DNA from: Chloroflexota bacterium
GTDB lineage: Bacteria > Chloroflexota > UBA11872 > VXOZ01
Length of the DNA: 64,000 bases
Direction: 5' to 3'
Assembly (NCBI GenBank): GCA_958295775.1
Contig: CATQHC010000003.1
Coordinates: 310,001 to 374,000 of the forward strand
Part shown: positions 1,316 to 13,344 of the stretch, piece after piece
Numbering within the stretch: the first letter of the stretch is position 1
Layout: the number at the start of each line of letters is the position of its first letter
Notes under the pieces: model-generated
Databases searched by the model: none
What the model saw: only the letters and a program-made list of their open reading frames with translations
What the model was told of the DNA's origin: nothing
Made by a program: the position numbers and the translations under genes

Positions 1316-1344
1316 TTGACAAAAGACGTCTAGACGTCCATACT
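1316..1344 (+). promoter_or_regulatory. Sigma70-type promoter of the DPPY methyltransferase with internal palindrome
   Basis: A perfect -35 TTGACA (1316-1321) is separated by 17 bp from a -10 CATACT (1339-1344). The last 14 bp of the spacer (1325-1338) are a perfect palindrome, GACGTCTAGACGTC, so a dimeric repressor bound there would block polymerase. The expected transcription start (about 1351) is only a few bases before the ATG at 1354, which predicts a leaderless or nearly leaderless mRNA. Confidence 0.7.
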
Positions 1345-1353
1345 TGGGACATT

Positions 1354-2511
1354 ATGGAACAGAATCAAAGCAGGCGCGCACCCGGCCGAGTTCGCGACGG
1401 CATCCTTCAGGTGATGTCACATACATCTAGGGGGTTGACGGCCAAGGAGATCGGCGACCGAGTCTCGCAGGTTGTCGGGCCGGTAAAGGAGTCCTCCGTG
1501 CGGTCCTATCTCAGACTGAATACACCGCAGTTGTTCACGCGAGAGGAACGAGGAGTATATACACTCAATCGAGACGCAGAGTCGGCCATACAACTCAAAG
1601 TGCCTCAGGTTCAGACCTTCAAAGCCCCAATCCTTGTTGGCAGCGCAACACTCCATCACGCAGACTGCTTCGATTGGCTAGAGCAGCAGGCAGACGCCTC
1701 TTACCACGCCGTGATTACGGATCCGCCGTACGGACTTCATGAGTACACGGATGAGCAGCAGGCAAAATTACGCATGGGTAGAGGCGGTGTTTGGCGCATT
1801 CCCCCCTCATTTGACGGCCACACGCGCTCTCCAATACCCCGATTTACCACACTCACCGCTGAACAACTCAAGCAAATAAGAGCGTTCTTCTTTGTCTGGG
1901 CACGGCTATTGCTACCGAAACTGGTTCCGGGTGCTCACGTAGTCGTAGCATCCAACCCTCTCGTGTCGTATTTGGTGTCAGCGGCGCTAGCGGAAGCCGG
2001 CTTGGAACGACGAGGAGAGATTGTGCGGCTAACCATGACGATGCGAGGCGGCGATCGACCAAAAGCGGCTCACGATGAGTTTTCTGATGTCAGCGTAATG
2101 CCGCGTTCGATGTGGGAACCTTGGCTGGTATACCGCAAGCCTCTAATGGGAAGGGTGCAGGACAACCTAAGACGATGGAAGACAGGGGGGTTCCGCCGAC
2201 CAAGTCAAGAAAAGCCGTTCGGAGACGTAATTCCTTCCTCTCCCACAAGGAAAGCCGAAAAAGACCTTGCGCCGCACCCCAGTCTCAAGCCTCAATCCTT
2301 CTTGCGCCAACTCGTGCGTGCCATTTTGCCGCTGGGAGAAGGTATCGTCCTCGATCCTTTTGCGGGCGCAGGGTCAACTTTGGCTGCCGCCGAAGCCGTA
2401 GGCTATGCAAGCGTCGGCGTTGAGCGAGATGAACACTACTTCGAGATGGCTAGTGCCGCCATTCCAAAGTTAGTTCACTTTTCTCCGAACGGGAGTCAGT
2501 CCAGGCGATAG
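1354..2511 (+). CDS. DNA methyltransferase (beta class, DPPY) with N-terminal winged-helix domain
   Basis: Predicted to methylate the exocyclic amine of adenine (or cytosine N4) in DNA. Motif IV is DPPY (residues 123-126). Motif I, FAGAGS (336-341), lies near the C-terminus, and this order defines the beta class. Residues about 10-72 look like a winged helix-turn-helix (GLTAKEIGDRV...SSVRSYL), unusual for a solitary methylase and possibly regulatory or DNA-targeting. The gene faces a HerA-NurA-methyltransferase operon on the other strand, with 83 bp between the stops. GC is visibly lower than in the flanking metabolic genes, which suggests transfer. Its own promoter carries a palindrome, so autoregulation is plausible (inference). 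Target sequence unknown. Confidence 0.88.
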   Translation: MEQNQSRRAPGRVRDGILQVMSHTSRGLTAKEIGDRVSQVVGPVKESSVRSYLRLNTPQLFTREERGVYTLNRDAESAIQLKVPQVQTFKAPILVGSATLHHADCFDWLEQQADASYHAVITDPPYGLHEYTDEQQAKLRMGRGGVWRIPPSFDGHTRSPIPRFTTLTAEQLKQIRAFFFVWARLLLPKLVPGAHVVVASNPLVSYLVSAALAEAGLERRGEIVRLTMTMRGGDRPKAAHDEFSDVSVMPRSMWEPWLVYRKPLMGRVQDNLRRWKTGGFRRPSQEKPFGDVIPSSPTRKAEKDLAPHPSLKPQSFLRQLVRAILPLGEGIVLDPFAGAGSTLAAAEAVGYASVGVERDEHYFEMASAAIPKLVHFSPNGSQSRR

Positions 2512-2594
2512 ACCCAACTTTGCCTGAGCTTCTGAATACCTTCCTTGTGGAGCGTCGCGGTTCTAGTGCCAAGAAAGATATGTTTGGCCCAGCG

Positions 2595-3740
2595 CTACCG
2601 AGGCTGCAAGATGAGATCTACCTCACAGTTGGCCTGCTTAGGTGCTCCGCCGCGGCTGTATGGTTTGAGTTGACGGTCTGGATGCAAGGGGTGCGAAATC
2701 TCAGTAAGGCTCTTCTCTGGGAAGTTGCGCACAAGCGCTTCCAAGGTATTCCGATATGTCAATTCCCGACGATCAGTTCTCACGTAAATTACTGCATCTT
2801 CGGTTAGAATGGGCTTCGACTTGGAGAGAATTTGGTCAATAAGCTGTAGATGGTGGTGCGAGTTGCTGAATTTGCCACCGTATCGGTTGCTGGTTCGTGC
2901 GGTGGGGCGTTCAGGGCCACCCAAGAGCCAAAGTCTTAACCACTGATCGTAATAGTAGTTGGTGACGTTATGGTAGGGTGGCGAGGTGAGCAAGAGTCTC
3001 GCTTTGGCGCGTTTACCTTCTCTGACTTCACGTGCTAGACTGAGCAGCTTTTGGGTGCTGTCTGCCAAGAACACGTTCGCGTTTCCAGTTTGCGGACGAC
3101 CATGGACGTAACGCCATGTAATGCGCTTTCCTAGAAATTCGACTGGGTCAACATCTGGTGGACTCATCCTATTCTTGCGCCACCATGCTACGCAGTAGTC
3201 TGGAGACATTGCAGTGCTCTGGCGCATCTGATTGGATAGAGATTGTCCGATTTTGCCATGCAGCGACACCAGAATTATGGCCACCAAGGTACGATCCGCA
3301 TGCTTCCGTCGCCAGTCCAGGTTTTCACGAACTGCCAGTAGAAATTCTCGCACTCTCGTTGAGTAGCAGGAGTGAAAAAACTCAGGAAGCGCGTTTGCCG
3401 ATTCGCGGTAGCGACCGGCTTCCTTAGCCAAATCTTCCAACCTACGAACCACAGCGGTATACTCCCCCACTTTGAGCTTGGCATTCGCGTACACATACCC
3501 AAGCGGGTTTATTTCAATTCCAGTTCCAGAACGGTCTTGGACAGCAGCACTAAAGATTGCCGTACCCCTACCAGCAAATGGATCAAGAACAGCATCTCCG
3601 GGCTGAGTATATTCTTCTACAACTGCATCAGCGAACGCAGTCGGAAACATCGCGTAGTAAGGACCGATCCCGGCCCATCGGCCCTTAGCACTGCCGTATC
3701 TTTGCCTCGAGGGCATCGGAGGGTTGCCTTGCTGATTCAT
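2595..3740 (-). CDS. DNA methyltransferase (TSPPY, probable N4-cytosine)
   Basis: SAM-dependent DNA methyltransferase of 381 aa. Motif I is DPFAGRGT (residues 53-60) and precedes motif IV, SPPY (253-256, in a TSPPY context). SPPY is typical of N4-cytosine enzymes. The order I then IV differs from the facing beta-class methylase, so the cassette has two unrelated modification enzymes. Its ATG overlaps the stop of the upstream NurA reading frame as ATGA (3737-3740), a sign of translational coupling. It is the last gene of the HerA-NurA-methylase operon. It could modify host DNA to protect it from the HerA-NurA nuclease (inference). Confidence 0.85.
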   Translation of the reverse strand: MNQQGNPPMPSRQRYGSAKGRWAGIGPYYAMFPTAFADAVVEEYTQPGDAVLDPFAGRGTAIFSAAVQDRSGTGIEINPLGYVYANAKLKVGEYTAVVRRLEDLAKEAGRYRESANALPEFFHSCYSTRVREFLLAVRENLDWRRKHADRTLVAIILVSLHGKIGQSLSNQMRQSTAMSPDYCVAWWRKNRMSPPDVDPVEFLGKRITWRYVHGRPQTGNANVFLADSTQKLLSLAREVREGKRAKARLLLTSPPYHNVTNYYYDQWLRLWLLGGPERPTARTSNRYGGKFSNSHHHLQLIDQILSKSKPILTEDAVIYVRTDRRELTYRNTLEALVRNFPEKSLTEISHPLHPDRQLKPYSRGGAPKQANCEVDLILQPR

Positions 3741-4726
3741 TCCTCGCTGAATAGCTCCGTTAGAATCCTAGCGCCAGTTCTAAGCGGGATGGCCGCGTGC
3801 GCGTGTGCACGTACTAGTGGCGCAAAGCCGTCTTGGTAGAGATGTGTGGAAAGCTCATCCATAAGGTCCAAAGCCTCTCCTAGCCTTGGGAAAGCCGCTT
3901 CATCCACACAATGCGGGTCTCTGCCGCTGTCATTCACTATGGGCGTCATGATTACGGAGTGCTGGCCTGCTCTATTCTTATACAAGACTTTGCGTCCGTA
4001 ATAGGTCGCCTCTCCGTAAGGCTTAGCGTCCAGCGGGCGTAACACAATGTGCTTATGAATATAGTCAATATCTGGCGCCAGAGCTGTGCAATTGGGCAGT
4101 CGTTGCCCAGGGCCTTTTTTCTCCATCCAGTCCAACTCTTTCAGGTGGTCCAAGAACTGCCCCGATTTTTCTATCCCCATTAGCAAAATGCCAGGGTCTC
4201 CCTGCTCTTGTGCTTTCTTGTGAAGACGGGCAATTTCCGGCTCTATGTGGTATTTGAGCCATGCCGGCATACCGAATAGAGCCAAAGGGCCATCCATTAT
4301 GAAAGCCGTATCGCGGAAGACACCCAAGCTGTCCGTCCGCTCGAAGTATCTCAAGATGTTTACCAGTGTAAGCTGCTCTATTACCTGTCGGACTGCGGTG
4401 AATGCCTGTTCACTTGGGCCGTTTTCTTCGAATCGCTCATGGGCCCTCAGTACGTCAGTCTCAAAGATAACTTCAGCCTGCGGGCAAATGCAGATACTGG
4501 CGCCTTGCCCTGGACTAATCTTCTTTTCGGTCACTCCAAGGGGACAGTCATCAACAGGGCAATCTATCGAGCCGGCACGATCTTTGGTTATGACTCGCAA
4601 TGTCTCTAACAGTGTTTCATGCTCTGGGTCCAGTCTTGCCTCTAACTCTTTGCTGATGGTCGCCCGAAAGAATCGCTTGGGAGAGTCCTCCGGTTCGCCC
4701 CTCCTTACTACGTTGCGACCAGGCAA
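3737..4726 (-). CDS. NurA-domain nuclease, C-terminal part (frameshifted)
   Basis: This 329-aa frame holds the second half of a NurA-type nuclease. It contains the motif IMDGPLALFG (Asp at residue 145), which in NurA supplies a second metal-binding Asp, and a C-terminal His-rich stretch. The first catalytic motif is in the adjacent frame upstream (4708-5079). The frames overlap by 19 nt and are offset by -1, so one indel or a ribosomal frameshift would join them into about 445 aa. If translated separately, the start would be TTG at 4726. A Cys cluster (C56, C61, C79, C81) suggests a small zinc-binding insertion. The stop overlaps the methyltransferase start (ATGA). Confidence 0.7.
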   Translation of the reverse strand: MPGRNVVRRGEPEDSPKRFFRATISKELEARLDPEHETLLETLRVITKDRAGSIDCPVDDCPLGVTEKKISPGQGASICICPQAEVIFETDVLRAHERFEENGPSEQAFTAVRQVIEQLTLVNILRYFERTDSLGVFRDTAFIMDGPLALFGMPAWLKYHIEPEIARLHKKAQEQGDPGILLMGIEKSGQFLDHLKELDWMEKKGPGQRLPNCTALAPDIDYIHKHIVLRPLDAKPYGEATYYGRKVLYKNRAGQHSVIMTPIVNDSGRDPHCVDEAAFPRLGEALDLMDELSTHLYQDGFAPLVRAHAHAAIPLRTGARILTELFSEE

Positions 4727-5079
4727 TACAGCACTGAGTGTTTCACATTGCCCATTTCCCGCATTTCCCTTGGACTTGGAATGTAGTCGCGTGGGATGTT
4801 GCGTATCGCCTCTAGCTTAATCACAATGGCTGCCAGATTAAGAAGTGCAGCTTCAGCACCGGGGTAGCCATTCTTAACTTGGTGAGTTACCGTCGAACCA
4901 TCAATTGCTATCACGCGCTTTATTCTGCCAGCCCCTCGCTCCAAATCAAGGCTGTCGGGCGGCTCATGGGAAATCTGGTTTTCGCTATACCTAATCGCGC
5001 CCTGAAACTCCTTGACACTAGGGCTTTCTGCCAAACGCCAGAGAGAGTCTCCCCTGGCGAATTCGTTACGGTACGGCAT
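4708..5079 (-). CDS. NurA-domain nuclease, N-terminal part (frameshifted)
   Basis: A 123-aa frame with the NurA signature VIAIDGS (catalytic Asp at residue 60). ATG at 5079 has a GGAG Shine-Dalgarno about 9 nt upstream. It starts 55 nt after the HerA stop. NurA is a 5'-3' exonuclease/endonuclease that works in complex with the HerA hexamer. Here the frame stops at 4708 while the rest of the domain continues in the -1 frame. I found no convincing slippery heptamer in register, so an assembly error or a real inactivating indel are both possible. The pairing with HerA supports the identification. Confidence 0.7.
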   Translation of the reverse strand: MPYRNEFARGDSLWRLAESPSVKEFQGAIRYSENQISHEPPDSLDLERGAGRIKRVIAIDGSTVTHQVKNGYPGAEAALLNLAAIVIKLEAIRNIPRDYIPSPREMREMGNVKHSVLYCLVAT

Positions 5080-5134
5080 TAGGAATCTCCAAGTGACATG
5101 CCCGCTGGTGATTCTAAAGAGGGTACAGGGTTCA

Positions 5135-7312
5135 TTACTCTAATTCTTGCGGTACAGGAGCCGTGAACAAGTCGATTTGCACCGGCAATGTGTAAGGGCT
5201 GGACAATGTGCGAACTCTCAAGAAGCCGGTTTCGTTTACCTTGATAATACTGTCTGTGAAGTCGGCGAAGTCATTGTACTTGTTCAATTGTCGAGTTTCG
5301 TCTGTGTTGTTGAGGTGTGCAATGAACCAGTTCTCACTGTTGGTAAGAATGTTGGGTTGAATTGTAGATGGTTCTTGCGTCGAGTACACCAAGCCGATGT
5401 TGAATTTTGCACCCTCCTTCGCGACCCTCGCCCAAATGTTAGTGGTGTCGGTCTCGCTCCCCTTAGGCAGCAAGGTGTGAGCTTCCTCAACATAGATAAT
5501 CACCGGAGGCGGCTTCTTCATTTCGCCGCTCTCCTTATCGGTTTCCGGATTGACAAAGGCCTTTTGTTGGGAAGCGAATATTCGCCACATGATCCGAGAA
5601 GCAGCCTGTTCGTTCATTTCGGGATCCCCCAACGCCTGGTCAAAGATCACCAGTCGGCCATCACGGATGTGGTCAACGATGTCTTCGGCATAGTCGGTTA
5701 CTTGGTCAAGACCGTGCCACTGCCGAGCTTGCTGAATAACAGCTAAACCACGGGTGTTTTCAAAGATGCGCAGCAGACCCAGGAACCGGTCATCGGACCA
5801 GTTTCTATCTGCTTGATATTCATTGTCAAAACTCTTGAACTCTCTGCTCGCCACCCATTCCGAGAATGCTCTACAGAAGTTTTGTGCCATATCCCAGGGC
5901 ATTTCGTCATTCCCTTTTAGATGTTCGGCATAGGCTTTCATTTCTGATGTGTTCTCCATCACTGTAAGAAGCTTTCTATTGAACAATCCCTTAGTGTTGA
6001 TTCCTGTGGTGGGTCTTTCGAATGCAGCAGCAACCAGTATAGATTTATAGACAAACAGTGCCCGACGGTAACGGATACTCGCTCCAAAGTCGTCGGCGTC
6101 AGGTGGCGCTGTAATATCCACGTTGGTGAAACTCTTAATGTAGCCGCCAGACTCCTCCCGCAGGGCCTCATTTATGATTTGCTTGCCTTGATATAGGCTT
6201 TGCAAAGCTTCATCCAATTCCTGTTTGCCGGGATTCTTGCCAGACGGCACGCCATCACCAAAGAAATTGAACTTTGTGATTTTGCGATTAGGGTCATTTG
6301 GATGGGGGTGCAAGCCGTACGTTACGACGTCACCAGTAGGTGCATCGGGCATATTAGCTATGTTCTTCAGGCATCCCTGGTCTTGCGGGTTCTCATTTGC
6401 GTATTCGCCATTCGGGTCAAAAATCAATTGCCCGACTCTTTGACCACTCTCTCCGGTTCGCAACTGGAAAACGGCACTGGCAATGGTCTTGGTAGTATTG
6501 GACTTGCCGGTCCGTGTCATGCCAAATAGAGCAGTCCGTTGAGCCAAGAGATCCTCAGCCATCAAGCAGACCGGCACGGATTCGGGAGCATTTAGGTCTC
6601 GAATGGAAGCCGCATAACGCAGCTTGCCAATTTGGACGGGTTCAGAACCCATTGATTCCCGCTTCGTATAGTTGACGATTCGTTGCAATGCTGTCCCGGC
6701 AGGCTTGTATACCTTCATGCCTTGACCAGCGTAAAAGTTGTCTATGTCTCCACCGAATTCCATACTCCAGTCTCCAGTTTCAACTTGGAGATTCATTCGG
6801 AATGTGCCCAGTATGCGGCAGTGCGCGCCGGCATAGCGCATCTGGTCTAAGGTGAACTGGTCGGTCTTGCCACCTTCATCCCAATTGTCTGGAGTTTGAG
6901 CCGCTCTTTGCCCGGCTTCGAGGCGAGCACTCTTCATCTCTATATCATTCGGCAGAGGACTCGCCCCCAAAGCACGTAGCAAAATCAGAGAAGCTTGGGC
7001 ATCATTCGGATCCGGCAGTGTGTCTTCCACTTCATCCAACCGTATTCTCGAAGCAAGCAACAGGCAACCGTGAGGGACTCCGCCGACATCCTGTCGCAAC
7101 CTGTCGTGAATTAGCACTTCGGCAGTGTTGTAGTCCATGCTAATGAGATCACCAACGTATCTTTCCAAGTCAATGAAACTAACCAGCCTGCGGGCCGCCT
7201 GGTTGGCCTTACGCTTGGCTTTCTCTTCGGCATGCTCTTTCGTTACATTGCTAAGGGCTGTGTTATCAGCGGTGCCATCGCGTGCACCACTTCTATCCTG
7301 TGCTAGTGTCAC
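5135..7312 (-). CDS. herA: HerA-type hexameric DNA translocase ATPase
   Basis: FtsK/HerA-superfamily ATPase, about 725 aa. Walker A is GMTRTGKSNT (about residues 264-273). Walker B is VIIYVEEAH (about 604-612), with the Glu-Glu-Ala-His typical of HerA. A downstream STQEPS matches the sensor region. The N-terminal region fits the HAS-barrel part of the family. The protein is longer than archaeal HerA (about 500 aa), with extra sequence between the Walker motifs. The start is chosen as GTG at 7312 because AGGAG lies 9 nt upstream; a TTG at 7321 abuts that site. HerA pumps DNA for NurA in end resection, and several bacterial defence systems use HerA with a nuclease or NADase. It is the first gene of the operon. 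Confidence 0.85.
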   Translation of the reverse strand: MTLAQDRSGARDGTADNTALSNVTKEHAEEKAKRKANQAARRLVSFIDLERYVGDLISMDYNTAEVLIHDRLRQDVGGVPHGCLLLASRIRLDEVEDTLPDPNDAQASLILLRALGASPLPNDIEMKSARLEAGQRAAQTPDNWDEGGKTDQFTLDQMRYAGAHCRILGTFRMNLQVETGDWSMEFGGDIDNFYAGQGMKVYKPAGTALQRIVNYTKRESMGSEPVQIGKLRYAASIRDLNAPESVPVCLMAEDLLAQRTALFGMTRTGKSNTTKTIASAVFQLRTGESGQRVGQLIFDPNGEYANENPQDQGCLKNIANMPDAPTGDVVTYGLHPHPNDPNRKITKFNFFGDGVPSGKNPGKQELDEALQSLYQGKQIINEALREESGGYIKSFTNVDITAPPDADDFGASIRYRRALFVYKSILVAAAFERPTTGINTKGLFNRKLLTVMENTSEMKAYAEHLKGNDEMPWDMAQNFCRAFSEWVASREFKSFDNEYQADRNWSDDRFLGLLRIFENTRGLAVIQQARQWHGLDQVTDYAEDIVDHIRDGRLVIFDQALGDPEMNEQAASRIMWRIFASQQKAFVNPETDKESGEMKKPPPVIIYVEEAHTLLPKGSETDTTNIWARVAKEGAKFNIGLVYSTQEPSTIQPNILTNSENWFIAHLNNTDETRQLNKYNDFADFTDSIIKVNETGFLRVRTLSSPYTLPVQIDLFTAPVPQELE

Positions 7313-7452
7313 TACCTGCAACTCCTATTGCCCTTTCCTTTGGGCGGTCAAGAAGTGTTGTGTCATAGATGTCTCACTCACTAAAGGTGATCCTACACAG
7401 CGCACGCAGTTCTCACAATTAGAGGTCAAATTGCGCAGAAAGCTGGCTGATC

Positions 7453-8445
7453 TTATATCCCCATGCTGCGGAGGAAGTCGCTCGTGATTGCGACATGGAA
7501 GATGTGGCCGTCGTCGTGGGATTCGCAGCGCACGTTGGGGCAGTCGGCGAGGAAGTCGCAGCTATAGCGCTCTTCCGCCTCGATGCGGTAGATGACGCTT
7601 TCCTGTTTGCCGTACGTGAAGAGGAATTGCGTAGATGAAGACTTGATCTTCTCGCGCACGTTCTCGTTGCTGTAGGCTTGGCCGATGCCGGGGATGATGA
7701 TCTGGTTGTGCCCCGACCAGTGGATGCGCTCCATGATGACCGAAAAGCCGGAGGCGATTACGGCCGCCGTGGGTTGCGACTGCAATGACGTGAGCAGCGC
7801 CGCACCGCCGCCCTGGGAAAGCCCGGCGACCACCACGCTGTCATGCCGGCCCTGGAGGTACTTGGTGATGGCCATGGCGCTCACGATGTAGGCGGCGGAA
7901 TAGGACGTGGCATTATTGAGAAGCCAGTTCACGAAGAAGTTGACGTCCACCTTGCCCTCGCCGTTGTGAAAGGCCAGGCAGTCCTCGTTGGGCTTGATGA
8001 ACACGTAATTCGTGATGCCCTCGCCCAGCGCTTCGATGACGCCGTCGTGATAGCTCGCCGGATCCTTGCGGTAGATGGGCTCTGAGCAATTGAGACCGCT
8101 GCCCGGAATGATAAGCGACGCCGGCTGGTCGGTATCGGGAGCCGCAGGCGCGTAGGCATACCCGTGATACGTTGCCCCGCCCAGCGTGTACGTGACGTGC
8201 AAGAGGTGCGTCGCGCCTTCATCGAGCTCCAAAGTCTCGACAGATTCGATCTGCAATTCGTCGTAGGCTGTGAAGAATTGCTCCGCGGGCATCAGCAGCG
8301 TTGAGTTCGCCTCGTAAATGCAGTCAAGCGTGGAGAGCGCCGGATACAGCATCTCGTTCTCAATAATCGGATCGGAGAACGCGTGCTTGAAGATTTCTTC
8401 TTCCGGACCGCTATAGGACGGTTCGTTGGCAGTAGTAGCGTTCAT
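7453..8445 (-). CDS. Alpha/beta hydrolase
   Basis: About 330 aa with an alpha/beta-hydrolase nucleophile elbow, GLSQGG (Ser about residue 210), and a C-terminal HDDGH that can supply the catalytic His. An oxyanion-region motif IIPGSG occurs near residues 112-117. There is no signal peptide, so a cytoplasmic esterase or peptidase-like hydrolase is likely; the substrate cannot be told. ATG at 8445 is preferred over the longer frame to 8481 because GGAG and AGGA lie just upstream. It follows the HerA cassette on the same strand but has the GC-rich codon use of the backbone. Confidence 0.75.
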   Translation of the reverse strand: MNATTANEPSYSGPEEEIFKHAFSDPIIENEMLYPALSTLDCIYEANSTLLMPAEQFFTAYDELQIESVETLELDEGATHLLHVTYTLGGATYHGYAYAPAAPDTDQPASLIIPGSGLNCSEPIYRKDPASYHDGVIEALGEGITNYVFIKPNEDCLAFHNGEGKVDVNFFVNWLLNNATSYSAAYIVSAMAITKYLQGRHDSVVVAGLSQGGGAALLTSLQSQPTAAVIASGFSVIMERIHWSGHNQIIIPGIGQAYSNENVREKIKSSSTQFLFTYGKQESVIYRIEAEERYSCDFLADCPNVRCESHDDGHIFHVAITSDFLRSMGI

Positions 8446-8532
8446 TTCCTGATTTCTCCAGTATTGCAACGCCGACATCAAAGGCGGCGCTGAGGTGTAC
8501 GCCCCGGGGCAACTGCGGACAGATCGTCTTTG

Positions 8533-11428: not shown

Positions 11429-12238
11429 TCAGTGGCCGGTCAAGTCCTCTATGAATTGTTTGATTGGGCTGTACACCTCGTGGCTCCAATTCCAGTAGCC
11501 AAGTTTCGCCCCTTCACCGAGCTTCAAACCGGGTTCGGGTCTTGAGGCGAGAAAGGCTTGGACGCTGGCTTTCTTTCGGTTTTGGCCCCGCCAGTTCGGC
11601 ACACTTCTCTTGACACACTCGATGTATTCATCAACACATGGCATAGCCGGATCAGCCTGCACGGCGTCAAGGCATACGTCTTCAAGCATGCCTTCAGACT
11701 CTCCTGGCGGCAGAATGAGGATGCCAATCCTGGGTTTCTCACCAACAACCTGCAACGGACGCTCCGGAGGGTTCAGCTCTGAGGCACTAATTGCAGCATA
11801 TGCGCTCTTGAAAGCTGCCTCCGCAGCGGATTCAGTGCCGGAAGCACTCAATTCAGCGTCGCGGACGATGCCGATTGCCTCAATTGTGGTTCGCGCGCGA
11901 GGCGCGTTCCAAACGGCCCCAAGAAAGCTGTGCAGCTCAGTGACGCCGCCGAAGTTGCTAATTTCCGCGTCGCTGGGGTCAAGCCGTCCCAAGATTTCGT
12001 TCCGAACACGGTCAAAGGCTGCGAGATCCTCCTCGTCGAGTTTGCTTCTCAAGCCCAAACCCTTAATCATGTCAGGCGCATCTTTGTAGACTTTGGAGTG
12101 ACCGCGCCACTCGATTTCTCCTTGCACCTCTACGTTGTTGAAGCCCATGTGATTGAGGAAATGCATGAAGAAGAATTGCGCGTCCGCACCCTCGACGAGG
12201 AGTTGGATCGGCGCTCTTATACCGCTTCTCGGCGGCAC
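11429..12238 (-). CDS. TOPRIM-like DUF3226-type protein, partner of the ATPase
   Basis: 269 aa. The N-terminus reads PIQLLVEG (Glu at residue 16), as in TOPRIM-like nucleases. A central GIVRDAE and a C-terminal GILILPPG...GMLEDV resemble DUF3226 proteins, which usually sit beside AAA ATPases. The start is GTG at 12238, overlapping the ATPase stop as TAGTG, so the two are translationally coupled. Known relatives of this arrangement (OLD nucleases, Gabija GajA, PARIS AriA/AriB, RloA/RloB) act in phage defence. The DUF3226 assignment is by motif reading only; DUF4435 or another TOPRIM branch is an alternative. Confidence 0.6.
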   Translation of the reverse strand: MPPRSGIRAPIQLLVEGADAQFFFMHFLNHMGFNNVEVQGEIEWRGHSKVYKDAPDMIKGLGLRSKLDEEDLAAFDRVRNEILGRLDPSDAEISNFGGVTELHSFLGAVWNAPRARTTIEAIGIVRDAELSASGTESAAEAAFKSAYAAISASELNPPERPLQVVGEKPRIGILILPPGESEGMLEDVCLDAVQADPAMPCVDEYIECVKRSVPNWRGQNRKKASVQAFLASRPEPGLKLGEGAKLGYWNWSHEVYSPIKQFIEDLTGH

Positions 12239-13344
12239 TAGCGTACCTCCAGATTGGTGCGGATTGCGGCGGCAAGTGTCTCCTGATCGTATGTAATCAC
12301 GTGTGTCTCGTCTGCGATACGCTCCAACCGATGCAGCCTGAACGCGTATTCCCGGTCTTCACGAAAGGCCTCATGCGCGGCTTCGATGCATTCAAAGCTA
12401 TGTGTGGTGGCAAATACCTGTGTATTGTAGCGGCGCGCCGCCTCGTCAATTGACGCCCATACTCGGCTAAGTACGGAGTGATGAAATCCGTTTTCGATTT
12501 CATCTATTAAAACCACGCCATCCGGTGCATCGGCAATTGCGAGCAGAGTATTTGTAAGACTTCCCAGACCATCTCCTAGAAGTGAGAGCGGAACCATGCG
12601 GCCGATCCCAATATCACCACGCAGCATCGGAGTACCTGCTACTACCCCCACTCGCACTCGCTTCAGTCGAGGTTCGATGATTCTCAGTGTCTCAAGCAAC
12701 TCACTCGGTTCTCGCTCACTCTCTAAGCGCGTGTACTTTGTGGCAGCGTTCTGCAATCCTCTCGACTTGTTTCCTCCAAGGTATGATCCTCTGAACGGAA
12801 GTTCCGGTCTGATAGGTGGATCGGAGGCTACACGCACGGTAAGTGCTCCATCGCTTGCAGCTTCAATGACCATGGCAGATTCTACTACCGACCCATCTGG
12901 CTTGGAGTGCACAAGCTTGAGAAAGTGACCATAGATCGGTAACGATTCTAGTTCACCGGTGCCTTCATCCGCTCTTCCATCACTAACCGAAAAGTGAGTG
13001 GTGCTCACGCGGTCAATTGAAACCTGCGCAACATGCTCTCGGCCACAATGAATCCCCCTAATTTCTATGACGTCAGAAGAGTTAAGATTGTGAAAGAGCG
13101 AATTCCAGAGCAGTTCGGTAAGTTGCGAGAGTTCTCCCAAGTAGTTTCCAGCTAGACCACGATAATTTCCAAGTTGGACAACCAACTCGACATTTCCCAT
13201 GCCGATGAGCATGTAGATTGCTTCCAGCAGTGCGGTCTTGCCGGCGCTATTCAACCCTGCAATCAAGTTGACCCGATTCAGGGAGTCATCAATCGAAAGC
13301 GATTCGAAACAGCGAAAATTGCGAATGGAAAGCGACGTGAACAT
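12238..13344 (-). CDS. AAA ATPase, OLD/AAA_15-AAA_21 type
   Basis: SMC-like ABC-type ATPase of 368 aa. It opens with the family start SLSIRNFRCFESL. Walker A is GLNSAGKT (30-37), Walker B is VVLIDEIEN (277-285), and an H-loop ATTHS occurs near 313-317. There is no long coiled coil, as in AAA_15/AAA_21 proteins of anti-phage pairs. ATG at 13344 has GAGGAG 8 nt upstream, and a CATAAT -10-like box lies near 13375-13380. With the overlapping downstream TOPRIM-like gene it forms a two-gene operon. Base composition is lower in GC than the neighbours, similar to the HerA cassette. Confidence 0.85.
   Translation of the reverse strand: MFTSLSIRNFRCFESLSIDDSLNRVNLIAGLNSAGKTALLEAIYMLIGMGNVELVVQLGNYRGLAGNYLGELSQLTELLWNSLFHNLNSSDVIEIRGIHCGREHVAQVSIDRVSTTHFSVSDGRADEGTGELESLPIYGHFLKLVHSKPDGSVVESAMVIEAASDGALTVRVASDPPIRPELPFRGSYLGGNKSRGLQNAATKYTRLESEREPSELLETLRIIEPRLKRVRVGVVAGTPMLRGDIGIGRMVPLSLLGDGLGSLTNTLLAIADAPDGVVLIDEIENGFHHSVLSRVWASIDEAARRYNTQVFATTHSFECIEAAHEAFREDREYAFRLHRLERIADETHVITYDQETLAAAIRTNLEVR

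What the first reader, a model, noticed from the sequence alone, without database searches (positions are those of the whole stretch)
1316..7312. Candidate defence system: HerA + NurA + two different DNA methyltransferases
A lower-GC cassette inserted in a GC-rich metabolic backbone contains HerA, NurA and a TSPPY methylase in one coupled operon, facing a DPPY methylase with a winged-helix domain. HerA-NurA pairs process DNA ends in archaea, and HerA occurs in bacterial phage-defence systems. Two methylases of different classes in the same unit suggest self/non-self marking with HerA-NurA as the restriction arm. I do not know a named system with exactly this set; novelty is inference.
Basis: partly seen in the sequence, partly recalled or inferred. 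Interest (0 to 1): 0.85.

Follow-up and report, generated by a model that had tools for sequence, protein, structure and literature searches.

The report
HerA–NurA–methylase restriction-like gene cassette
A three-gene mobile cassette pairs a DNA-pumping motor (HerA) and a nuclease (NurA) with a DNA methylase; the trio recurs across bacteria and archaea and looks like an untested, still unnamed restriction–modification-type defence, although the nuclease gene of this particular copy is broken by one missing base.

Summary
The cassette is real, but it has three genes, not four: HerA (5135-7321 -), NurA (3737-5079 -) and a TSPPY methylase, MTB (2595-3740 -). The facing DPPY methylase, MTA (1354-2511 +), belongs to an older type II R-M pair. 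In same-genus genomes MTA faces its own putative endonuclease. In the window that endonuclease is reduced to its last 25 codons (2499-2573), and the HerA–NurA–MTB cassette sits in its place. The window's NurA carries a 1-base frameshift near 4751 (real or an assembly error).

Elsewhere HerA→NurA→MTB is nearly invariant. Counting more distant relatives, 89 of 93 loci with enough flanking DNA have a DNA methylase beside HerA–NurA, in at least three forms (MTB, a permuted TSPPF type, a D12/Dam type). Methylase form tracks the HerA clade (2 changes; 12.3 shuffled). The cassette is rare, patchy and horizontally spread. Closest solved relatives of both HerA and NurA are TdpA/TdpB.

Most likely an R-M-like system: methylation marks self, HerA–NurA degrades unmarked DNA. 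Function is untested. The main rival is DNA export, as proposed for the Thermus NurA–TdtA–methylase operon. No PADLOC or NCBIfam model names the set. From memory, Iyer et al. 2004 predicted a NurA-based R-M system.

The parts
5135..7321 (-). HerA-family hexameric DNA translocase (728 aa), intact; Walker A GMTRTGKSN (K273), Walker B VEEAH
   Evidence: PF01935 3.5e-11; family profile vs PDB TdpA 7.3e-37, next 3e-19; Walker motifs conserved in the 71-row alignment
3737..5079 (-). NurA-family nuclease gene, broken: N-terminal frame 4708-5079 (DGS motif), C-terminal frame 3737-4726 (DGPLA motif); one base missing near 4751 relative to intact L010
   Evidence: tblastn of L010 NurA: aa 1-109 at 5079-4753 (75%), aa 111-449 at 4750-3740 (78%); PF09376 in 15/21 members; fold = TdpB/NurA
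2595..3740 (-). MTB, SAM-dependent DNA methylase (381 aa), motif I DPFAGRGT then TSPPY; start overlaps the NurA stop by 4 bases
   Evidence: PF01555 4.5e-13; TSPPY in 71/71 rows; NurA/MTB overlap of 4 bases is the commonest spacing in relatives; fold weakly nearest Dam
2574..7461 (.). inserted low-GC cassette (bounds from synteny, to within a few bases)
   Evidence: blastn against four same-genus genomes: homology stops at 2573 (three of them) and resumes at 7462-7469; GC profile
2499..2573 (-). remnant (last 25 codons) of the putative endonuclease of the older MTA R-M pair, truncated by the cassette
   Evidence: tblastn 84-92% identity to L098/L099 endonucleases, E 3e-10 to 4e-10
1354..2511 (+). 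MTA, type II R-M methylase with winged-helix-like N-terminus and DPPY motif; not part of the cassette, now an orphan
   Evidence: PADLOC MTase_II PDLC03215 1.1e-107; present without HerA in L098, L099, L101; 58% identical to the methylase of a plasmid R-M pair

Best explanation
HerA, NurA and MTB form an R-M-like defence unit. MTB methylates host DNA at a specific site (m4C suggested by TSPPY, not shown). HerA, a hexameric ATP-driven translocase, and NurA, a nuclease dimer at its exit, load on DNA lacking the mark, most likely at ends or nicks of incoming linear phage or plasmid DNA, pump it and degrade both strands. Shown here: gene identity, conserved active sites, tight gene order, lasting coupling of HerA-NurA with a methylase, horizontal spread, and that this cassette replaced the endonuclease gene of another R-M system. 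Inferred: methylation as the self mark, how unmarked DNA is recognised, anti-phage activity. In this genome the restriction arm is probably off, because NurA is frameshifted (unless that is an assembly error); MTB may still methylate.
For: Three-gene order in about 75/80 loci, with no other gene recurring in more than 6 loci. Of 93 HerA-NurA loci with enough flank, 89 have an adjacent DNA methylase, against about 2-4% of 94 sampled neighbouring genes. Three methylase forms (TSPPY MTB; permuted PF01555 TSPPF; PF02086 D12) each stay with their own HerA clade: 2 changes against 12.3 shuffled. Catalytic motifs conserved. HerA is nearest TdpA (7e-37; next 3e-19) and the NurA model is nearest TdpB. 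Patchy: 10/400 Chloroflexota, 3/292, 6/295 and 1/399 in three other phyla. The HerA tree needs at least 36 phylum changes. MTB was exchanged within a HerA clade (p-AU 0.0007; HerA clade support 100). The cassette occupies the slot of another R-M endonuclease. T. kodakarensis HerA-NurA degrades both strands of dsDNA and is suggested to destroy foreign DNA (PMC12977600).
Against: No functional test. A HerA-NurA clade on three cyanobacterial plasmids (L004, L147, L148), and L121, have no adjacent methylase, so HerA-NurA can exist without one there. Neighbourhoods are not consistently defence islands (no control set was run). In Thermus, related gene content serves DNA donation, and its methylase is nearly dispensable (PMC7767461). 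MTB has no large variable recognition domain as typical R-M methylases do; its middle is conserved. The NurA of this copy is broken.
Confidence: 0.66

Rival explanations
1. DNA export or donation module: HerA pumps DNA out, or prepares it for transfer between cells, with NurA trimming, as in the Thermus ICETh1 transjugation operon (type IIG R-M enzyme, NurA, TdtA, PF01555 methylase).
For: Same three kinds of gene co-transcribed in Thermus; deletion of tdtA or the nurA homologue abolishes or cuts donation by 4-5 orders (PMC5365140). HerA belongs to the FtsK-HerA pumping superfamily.
Against: Gene order differs (NurA-TdtA-methylase). The type IIG enzyme and integrase of ICETh1 do not recur in the 80 loci. 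The same genes in Thermus could themselves be a co-opted R-M. The TdtA sequence could not be fetched, so kinship was not tested.
Confidence: 0.13
2. DNA-repair HerA-NurA pair that happens to carry a methylase.
For: Classical HerA-NurA pairs are studied in end resection (PMC12977600); the family fold is NurA.
Against: Rare and patchy. The window's genome has two further NurA genes, one with a HerA gene beside it. Methylase coupling in 89/93 loci is unexplained.
Confidence: 0.05
3. Four-gene defence system with two methylases.
For: The four genes are adjacent in this window.
Against: MTA exists without HerA in three same-genus genomes, facing its own putative endonuclease, whose remnant is at 2499-2573. 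MTA homologues near HerA in only 2 of 80 loci.
Confidence: 0.03
4. In this genome the cassette is a decaying relic: NurA is dead, and MTA and MTB are orphan methylases.
For: One-base frameshift near 4751, not in a long homopolymer; both NurA halves otherwise 75-78% identical to L010. Other loci are also broken: L006 HerA by a TnpB element, split genes in L023, L040, L065, L077.
Against: HerA and MTB are intact and the NurA halves show no further decay, so an assembly error or a very recent break is possible. Compatible with the main explanation for the family.
Confidence: 0.13

Closest known systems
TdpABC (phosphorothioation-based defence; TdpA = HerA-like hexamer, TdpB = NurA-like nuclease; PDB 8wet/8wfd)
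   Same: Same effector pair; TdpA is the closest solved HerA by a wide margin and TdpB the best fold match to NurA.
   Different: The modification gene is a DNA methylase, not TdpC; NurA is about 450 aa with a Cys-rich insert against 375 aa. Tdp mechanism is quoted from memory (paper not held).
Thermus thermophilus ICETh1 operon (TthHB27I-NurA-TdtA-PF01555 methylase), PMC5365140 and PMC7767461
   Same: NurA + HerA/FtsK-family ATPase + PF01555 methylase in one operon on a mobile element of low G+C.
   Different: Shown function is DNA donation; order differs; a type IIG enzyme is included and required.
Predicted NurA-based restriction-modification system of Iyer et al. 2004 (NAR 32:5260), recalled from memory
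   Same: Prediction that a NurA version is the endonuclease of a novel R-M system, from the same kind of gene context.
   Different: Could not be read here (not held), so whether it is this very clade is unverified.
HerA-centred defence systems: Sir2-HerA, HerA-DUF4297, 'HerA/FtsK capture' (DndFGH, BRC)
   Same: HerA-family motor working with a nuclease or effector.
   Different: Different effector, no dedicated methylase; PADLOC HerA models score only up to 67 bits and NCBIfam antiphage HerA models 37-58 bits against cut-offs of 800-850.
Type II restriction-modification
   Same: Methylase coupled to a nuclease, mobile, exchangeable at the same slot.
   Different: Restriction arm is an ATP-driven translocase plus exo/endonuclease, not a site-specific endonuclease.

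Membership tests
HerA | DUF87 HerA-type ATPase with Walker A/B | tested here: met
   PF01935 44.1 bits, cut-off 23.2; motifs
NurA | NurA domain (PF09376) with acidic active-site motifs | tested here: met
   15/21 family members hit PF09376, best 1.6e-29; fold match; DGS in 68/71 and DGPLA in 66/71 rows. The window's own fragments score below threshold
NurA | intact reading frame in this genome | tested here: not met
   frameshift near 4751
Restriction-modification (general) | methylase gene coupled to a DNA-degrading gene | tested here: met
   89 of 93 loci
Restriction-modification (general) | methylation protects from the paired nuclease | not testable with these tools
   needs an in vivo or in vitro assay
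TdpABC | HerA-like TdpA + NurA-like TdpB pair | tested here: met
   profile 7.3e-37 to TdpA; Foldseek 1.7e-7 to TdpB
TdpABC | phosphorothioation enzyme TdpC in the operon | tested here: not met
   no third recurrent family other than methylases
ICETh1 transjugation module | type IIG R-M enzyme and integrase in the element | tested here: not met
   no such recurrent neighbour; none among ORFs of the window segment read
ICETh1 transjugation module | HerA orthologous to TdtA | not tested
Named PADLOC or NCBIfam HerA defence systems | match to their HerA or partner models over curated cut-off | tested here: not met

The most novel reading that the evidence does not exclude
An unnamed R-M class in which a HerA-NurA (TdpAB-like) translocating nuclease is the constant restriction arm and any of three forms of DNA methylase supplies the self mark. 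Methylation would be read during translocation rather than by a site-specific endonuclease, making base methylation and phosphorothioation interchangeable 'brakes' on the same machine.
Probability: 0.45. Interest if true: 0.75.

Novelty: new variant of a known kind. Interest (0 to 1): 0.55.

Why it matters
If true, one motor–nuclease machine (HerA–NurA/TdpAB) is reused with chemically different self marks (m4C- or m6A-type methylases, or phosphorothioate), which makes directly testable how a translocase, rather than a site-specific endonuclease, tells self from non-self DNA. It would also recast bacterial HerA–NurA pairs, usually annotated as repair genes, as restriction systems, and bears on whether the Thermus DNA-donation machine was built from one. 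For this window it shows an R-M slot being overwritten by a different kind of R-M cassette, leaving an orphan methylase.

Tried and rejected
- Four-gene system: rejected by synteny and the endonuclease remnant.
- Programmed frameshift in NurA: no slippery site seen by eye, and relatives such as L010 read it as one frame; rejected.
- Named defence system: PADLOC and NCBIfam give only generic HerA or methylase scores.
- Free swapping of methylase form: rejected. Form tracks HerA clade with 2 changes, but an exchange within MTB is supported (the group was chosen after seeing identities).
- Defence-island context: some neighbours hit type I/II R-M, Kiwa and PDC families, but no control set was run, so no enrichment is claimed.
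- Virus collections: only one IMG/VR contig and two Vibrio prophages.
- Fetching TdtA via plasmids failed. Tdp and Iyer 2004 papers are not in the library.
- The MTB fold search gave only weak Dam-like and RNA-methylase matches, so the target base stays open.
Full report
OBSERVATION. Four convincing genes lie between a UbiA-type prenyltransferase gene (366-1256 +) and a serine-hydrolase-like gene (7453-8481 -): MTA (1354-2511 +), MTB (2595-3740 -), NurA (3737-5079 -) and HerA (5135-7321 -). GC falls to 0.49-0.54 within and is 0.58-0.62 on either side. HerA is PF01935 with conserved Walker motifs. NurA is below threshold by itself, but in an alignment of relatives 15 of 21 members match PF09376, best 1.6e-29. 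The AlphaFold model of the closest intact relative (L010, pLDDT 86) best matches TdpB, then NurA of D. radiodurans, S. solfataricus and T. kodakarensis.

THE NurA GENE IS BROKEN HERE. The L010 protein aligns to the window in two pieces: residues 1-109 at 5079-4753 and 111-449 at 4750-3740, in different frames, 75% and 78% identical. A base is missing in 'ATGG-GCAATG'. The spot is not a long homopolymer, and relatives such as L010 read through it in one frame, so this is a frame break or an assembly error, not programmed shifting. No reads were available.

MTA IS NOT PART OF IT. In four genomes of the same genus the flanks are syntenic. In three, MTA is present and faces a 206-224 aa protein carrying a PD…EVK motif, by eye a putative PD-(D/E)XK endonuclease; it has no Pfam or PDB match. 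HerA is absent from all four. In the window, the last 25 codons of that protein remain at 2499-2573 (84-92% identity) and the cassette begins directly after. The same convergent methylase/endonuclease pair sits on a 4.9-kb Klebsiella plasmid and a Gordonia plasmid, 58% and 65% identical respectively for the Klebsiella pair. So the HerA–NurA–MTB cassette replaced the endonuclease gene of a mobile type II R-M system and left its methylase as an orphan.

THE THREE-GENE MODULE. A scan of one genome per species found 485 relatives of the HerA; 80 loci were taken. HerA→NurA→MTB in the same order and strand occurs in about 75 of 80; most of the rest end at a contig border. NurA and MTB overlap by 4 bases most often. 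No other gene recurs in more than six loci. Active-site motifs are kept: TSPPY in 71/71 rows, DGS in 68/71, Walker A near invariant.

MORE DISTANT RELATIVES. Genome searches gave 10/400 Chloroflexota and 1/399, 3/292 and 6/295 genomes in three other phyla (kinship is given only by the seed genome). Their HerA–NurA pairs carry other methylases next to HerA: a permuted PF01555 'TSPPF' type (L122, L125, L126, L138-L140) or a D12/Dam type PF02086 (L007, L119, L120, L124, L141-L143). In all, 89 of 93 loci with enough flank have an adjacent DNA methylase. The M2 and D12 profiles used for that count were built from loci I had read by eye, so it is a tally, not an independent detection. Exceptions are a plasmid clade of cyanobacteria with HTH–HerA–NurA alone (L004, L147, L148) and L121. 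Methylase form follows HerA clade: 2 changes against 12.3 in shuffles. Within the MTB form one exchange is supported: the HerA clade of the window is one clade (support 100), but the MTB tree rejects it (p-AU 0.0007).

MOBILITY. The HerA tree needs at least 36 phylum changes, the least possible being 22 (bins may be contaminated). The cassette is absent from the other genomes of the genus, and one isolate, Psychrobacter lutiphocae, has two systems with different methylase forms.

HOW IT PROBABLY WORKS. HerA hexamers pump dsDNA into a NurA dimer; the T. kodakarensis complex digests both strands and its authors suggest a role in destroying foreign DNA (PMC12977600). The closest solved relatives of both proteins here are TdpA and TdpB; from memory, TdpAB degrades phage DNA and is inhibited by phosphorothioate placed by TdpC. 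Replacing TdpC by a methylase gives the model: methylation marks self, and unmarked DNA is pumped and degraded. Gene identity, coupling and mobility are shown; methylation as mark and anti-phage action are inferred.

RIVALS. In Thermus ICETh1 a NurA–TdtA–methylase operon drives DNA donation (PMC5365140; PMC7767461). The window's cassette lacks the type IIG enzyme of that element and the order differs, but kinship to TdtA could not be tested. Repair is unlikely because of rarity, because the genome has two further NurA genes, one with a HerA gene beside it, and because of the methylase coupling.

KNOWN OR NEW. No PADLOC 2023 or NCBIfam 2026 model names the set, and literature searches found no study of HerA–NurA–methylase as a defence system (open-licence papers only). 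From memory, Iyer et al. 2004 predicted a NurA-type endonuclease of a novel R-M system; the paper is not held. I therefore rate it a new variant of a known kind, functionally untested.

Noticed in passing
window 11429-13344 (-): Second low-GC defence-like pair: AAA ATPase (AbiLi model 1e-54, PDC-M38A 4e-52) plus DUF3226 protein (PF11536 5e-26, PDC-M38B 4e-9); apparently present in one same-genus genome (L100) and absent in another (L099).
   Followed up: partly
window 2499-2573 (-): 25-codon remnant of a putative restriction endonuclease, direct evidence of one R-M system overwriting another.
   Followed up: yes
L145 (Klebsiella plasmid pCol4401-L117), L146 (Gordonia plasmid pGRS1): The MTA-type methylase and a roughly 200 aa endonuclease without Pfam or PADLOC model form a convergent type II R-M pair on small mobilizable plasmids; annotated only as 'hypothetical protein'.
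   Followed up: partly
L004 8594-12270, L147 4195-7872, L148 4186-7866: Cyanobacterial plasmids carry HTH regulator-HerA-NurA of the same clade without any methylase nearby.
   Followed up: partly
L141-L143 (archaea): D12-type HerA-NurA loci have an EVE-domain gene (a domain family linked to reading modified bases) beside the methylase (PF01878 4e-25).
   Followed up: no
L119 9480-12964, L121 9419-12948: HerA-NurA followed by a UvrD-like helicase and a PD-(D/E)XK nuclease gene.
   Followed up: no
L006 8923-12721: HerA of the Deferribacter megaplasmid system is split by an IS200/IS605 TnpA-TnpB element.
   Followed up: no
L007: Vibrio cyclitrophicus prophage carries HerA-NurA and a D12 methylase next to its integrase, plus Gabija- and Shedu-annotated genes.
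   Followed up: no
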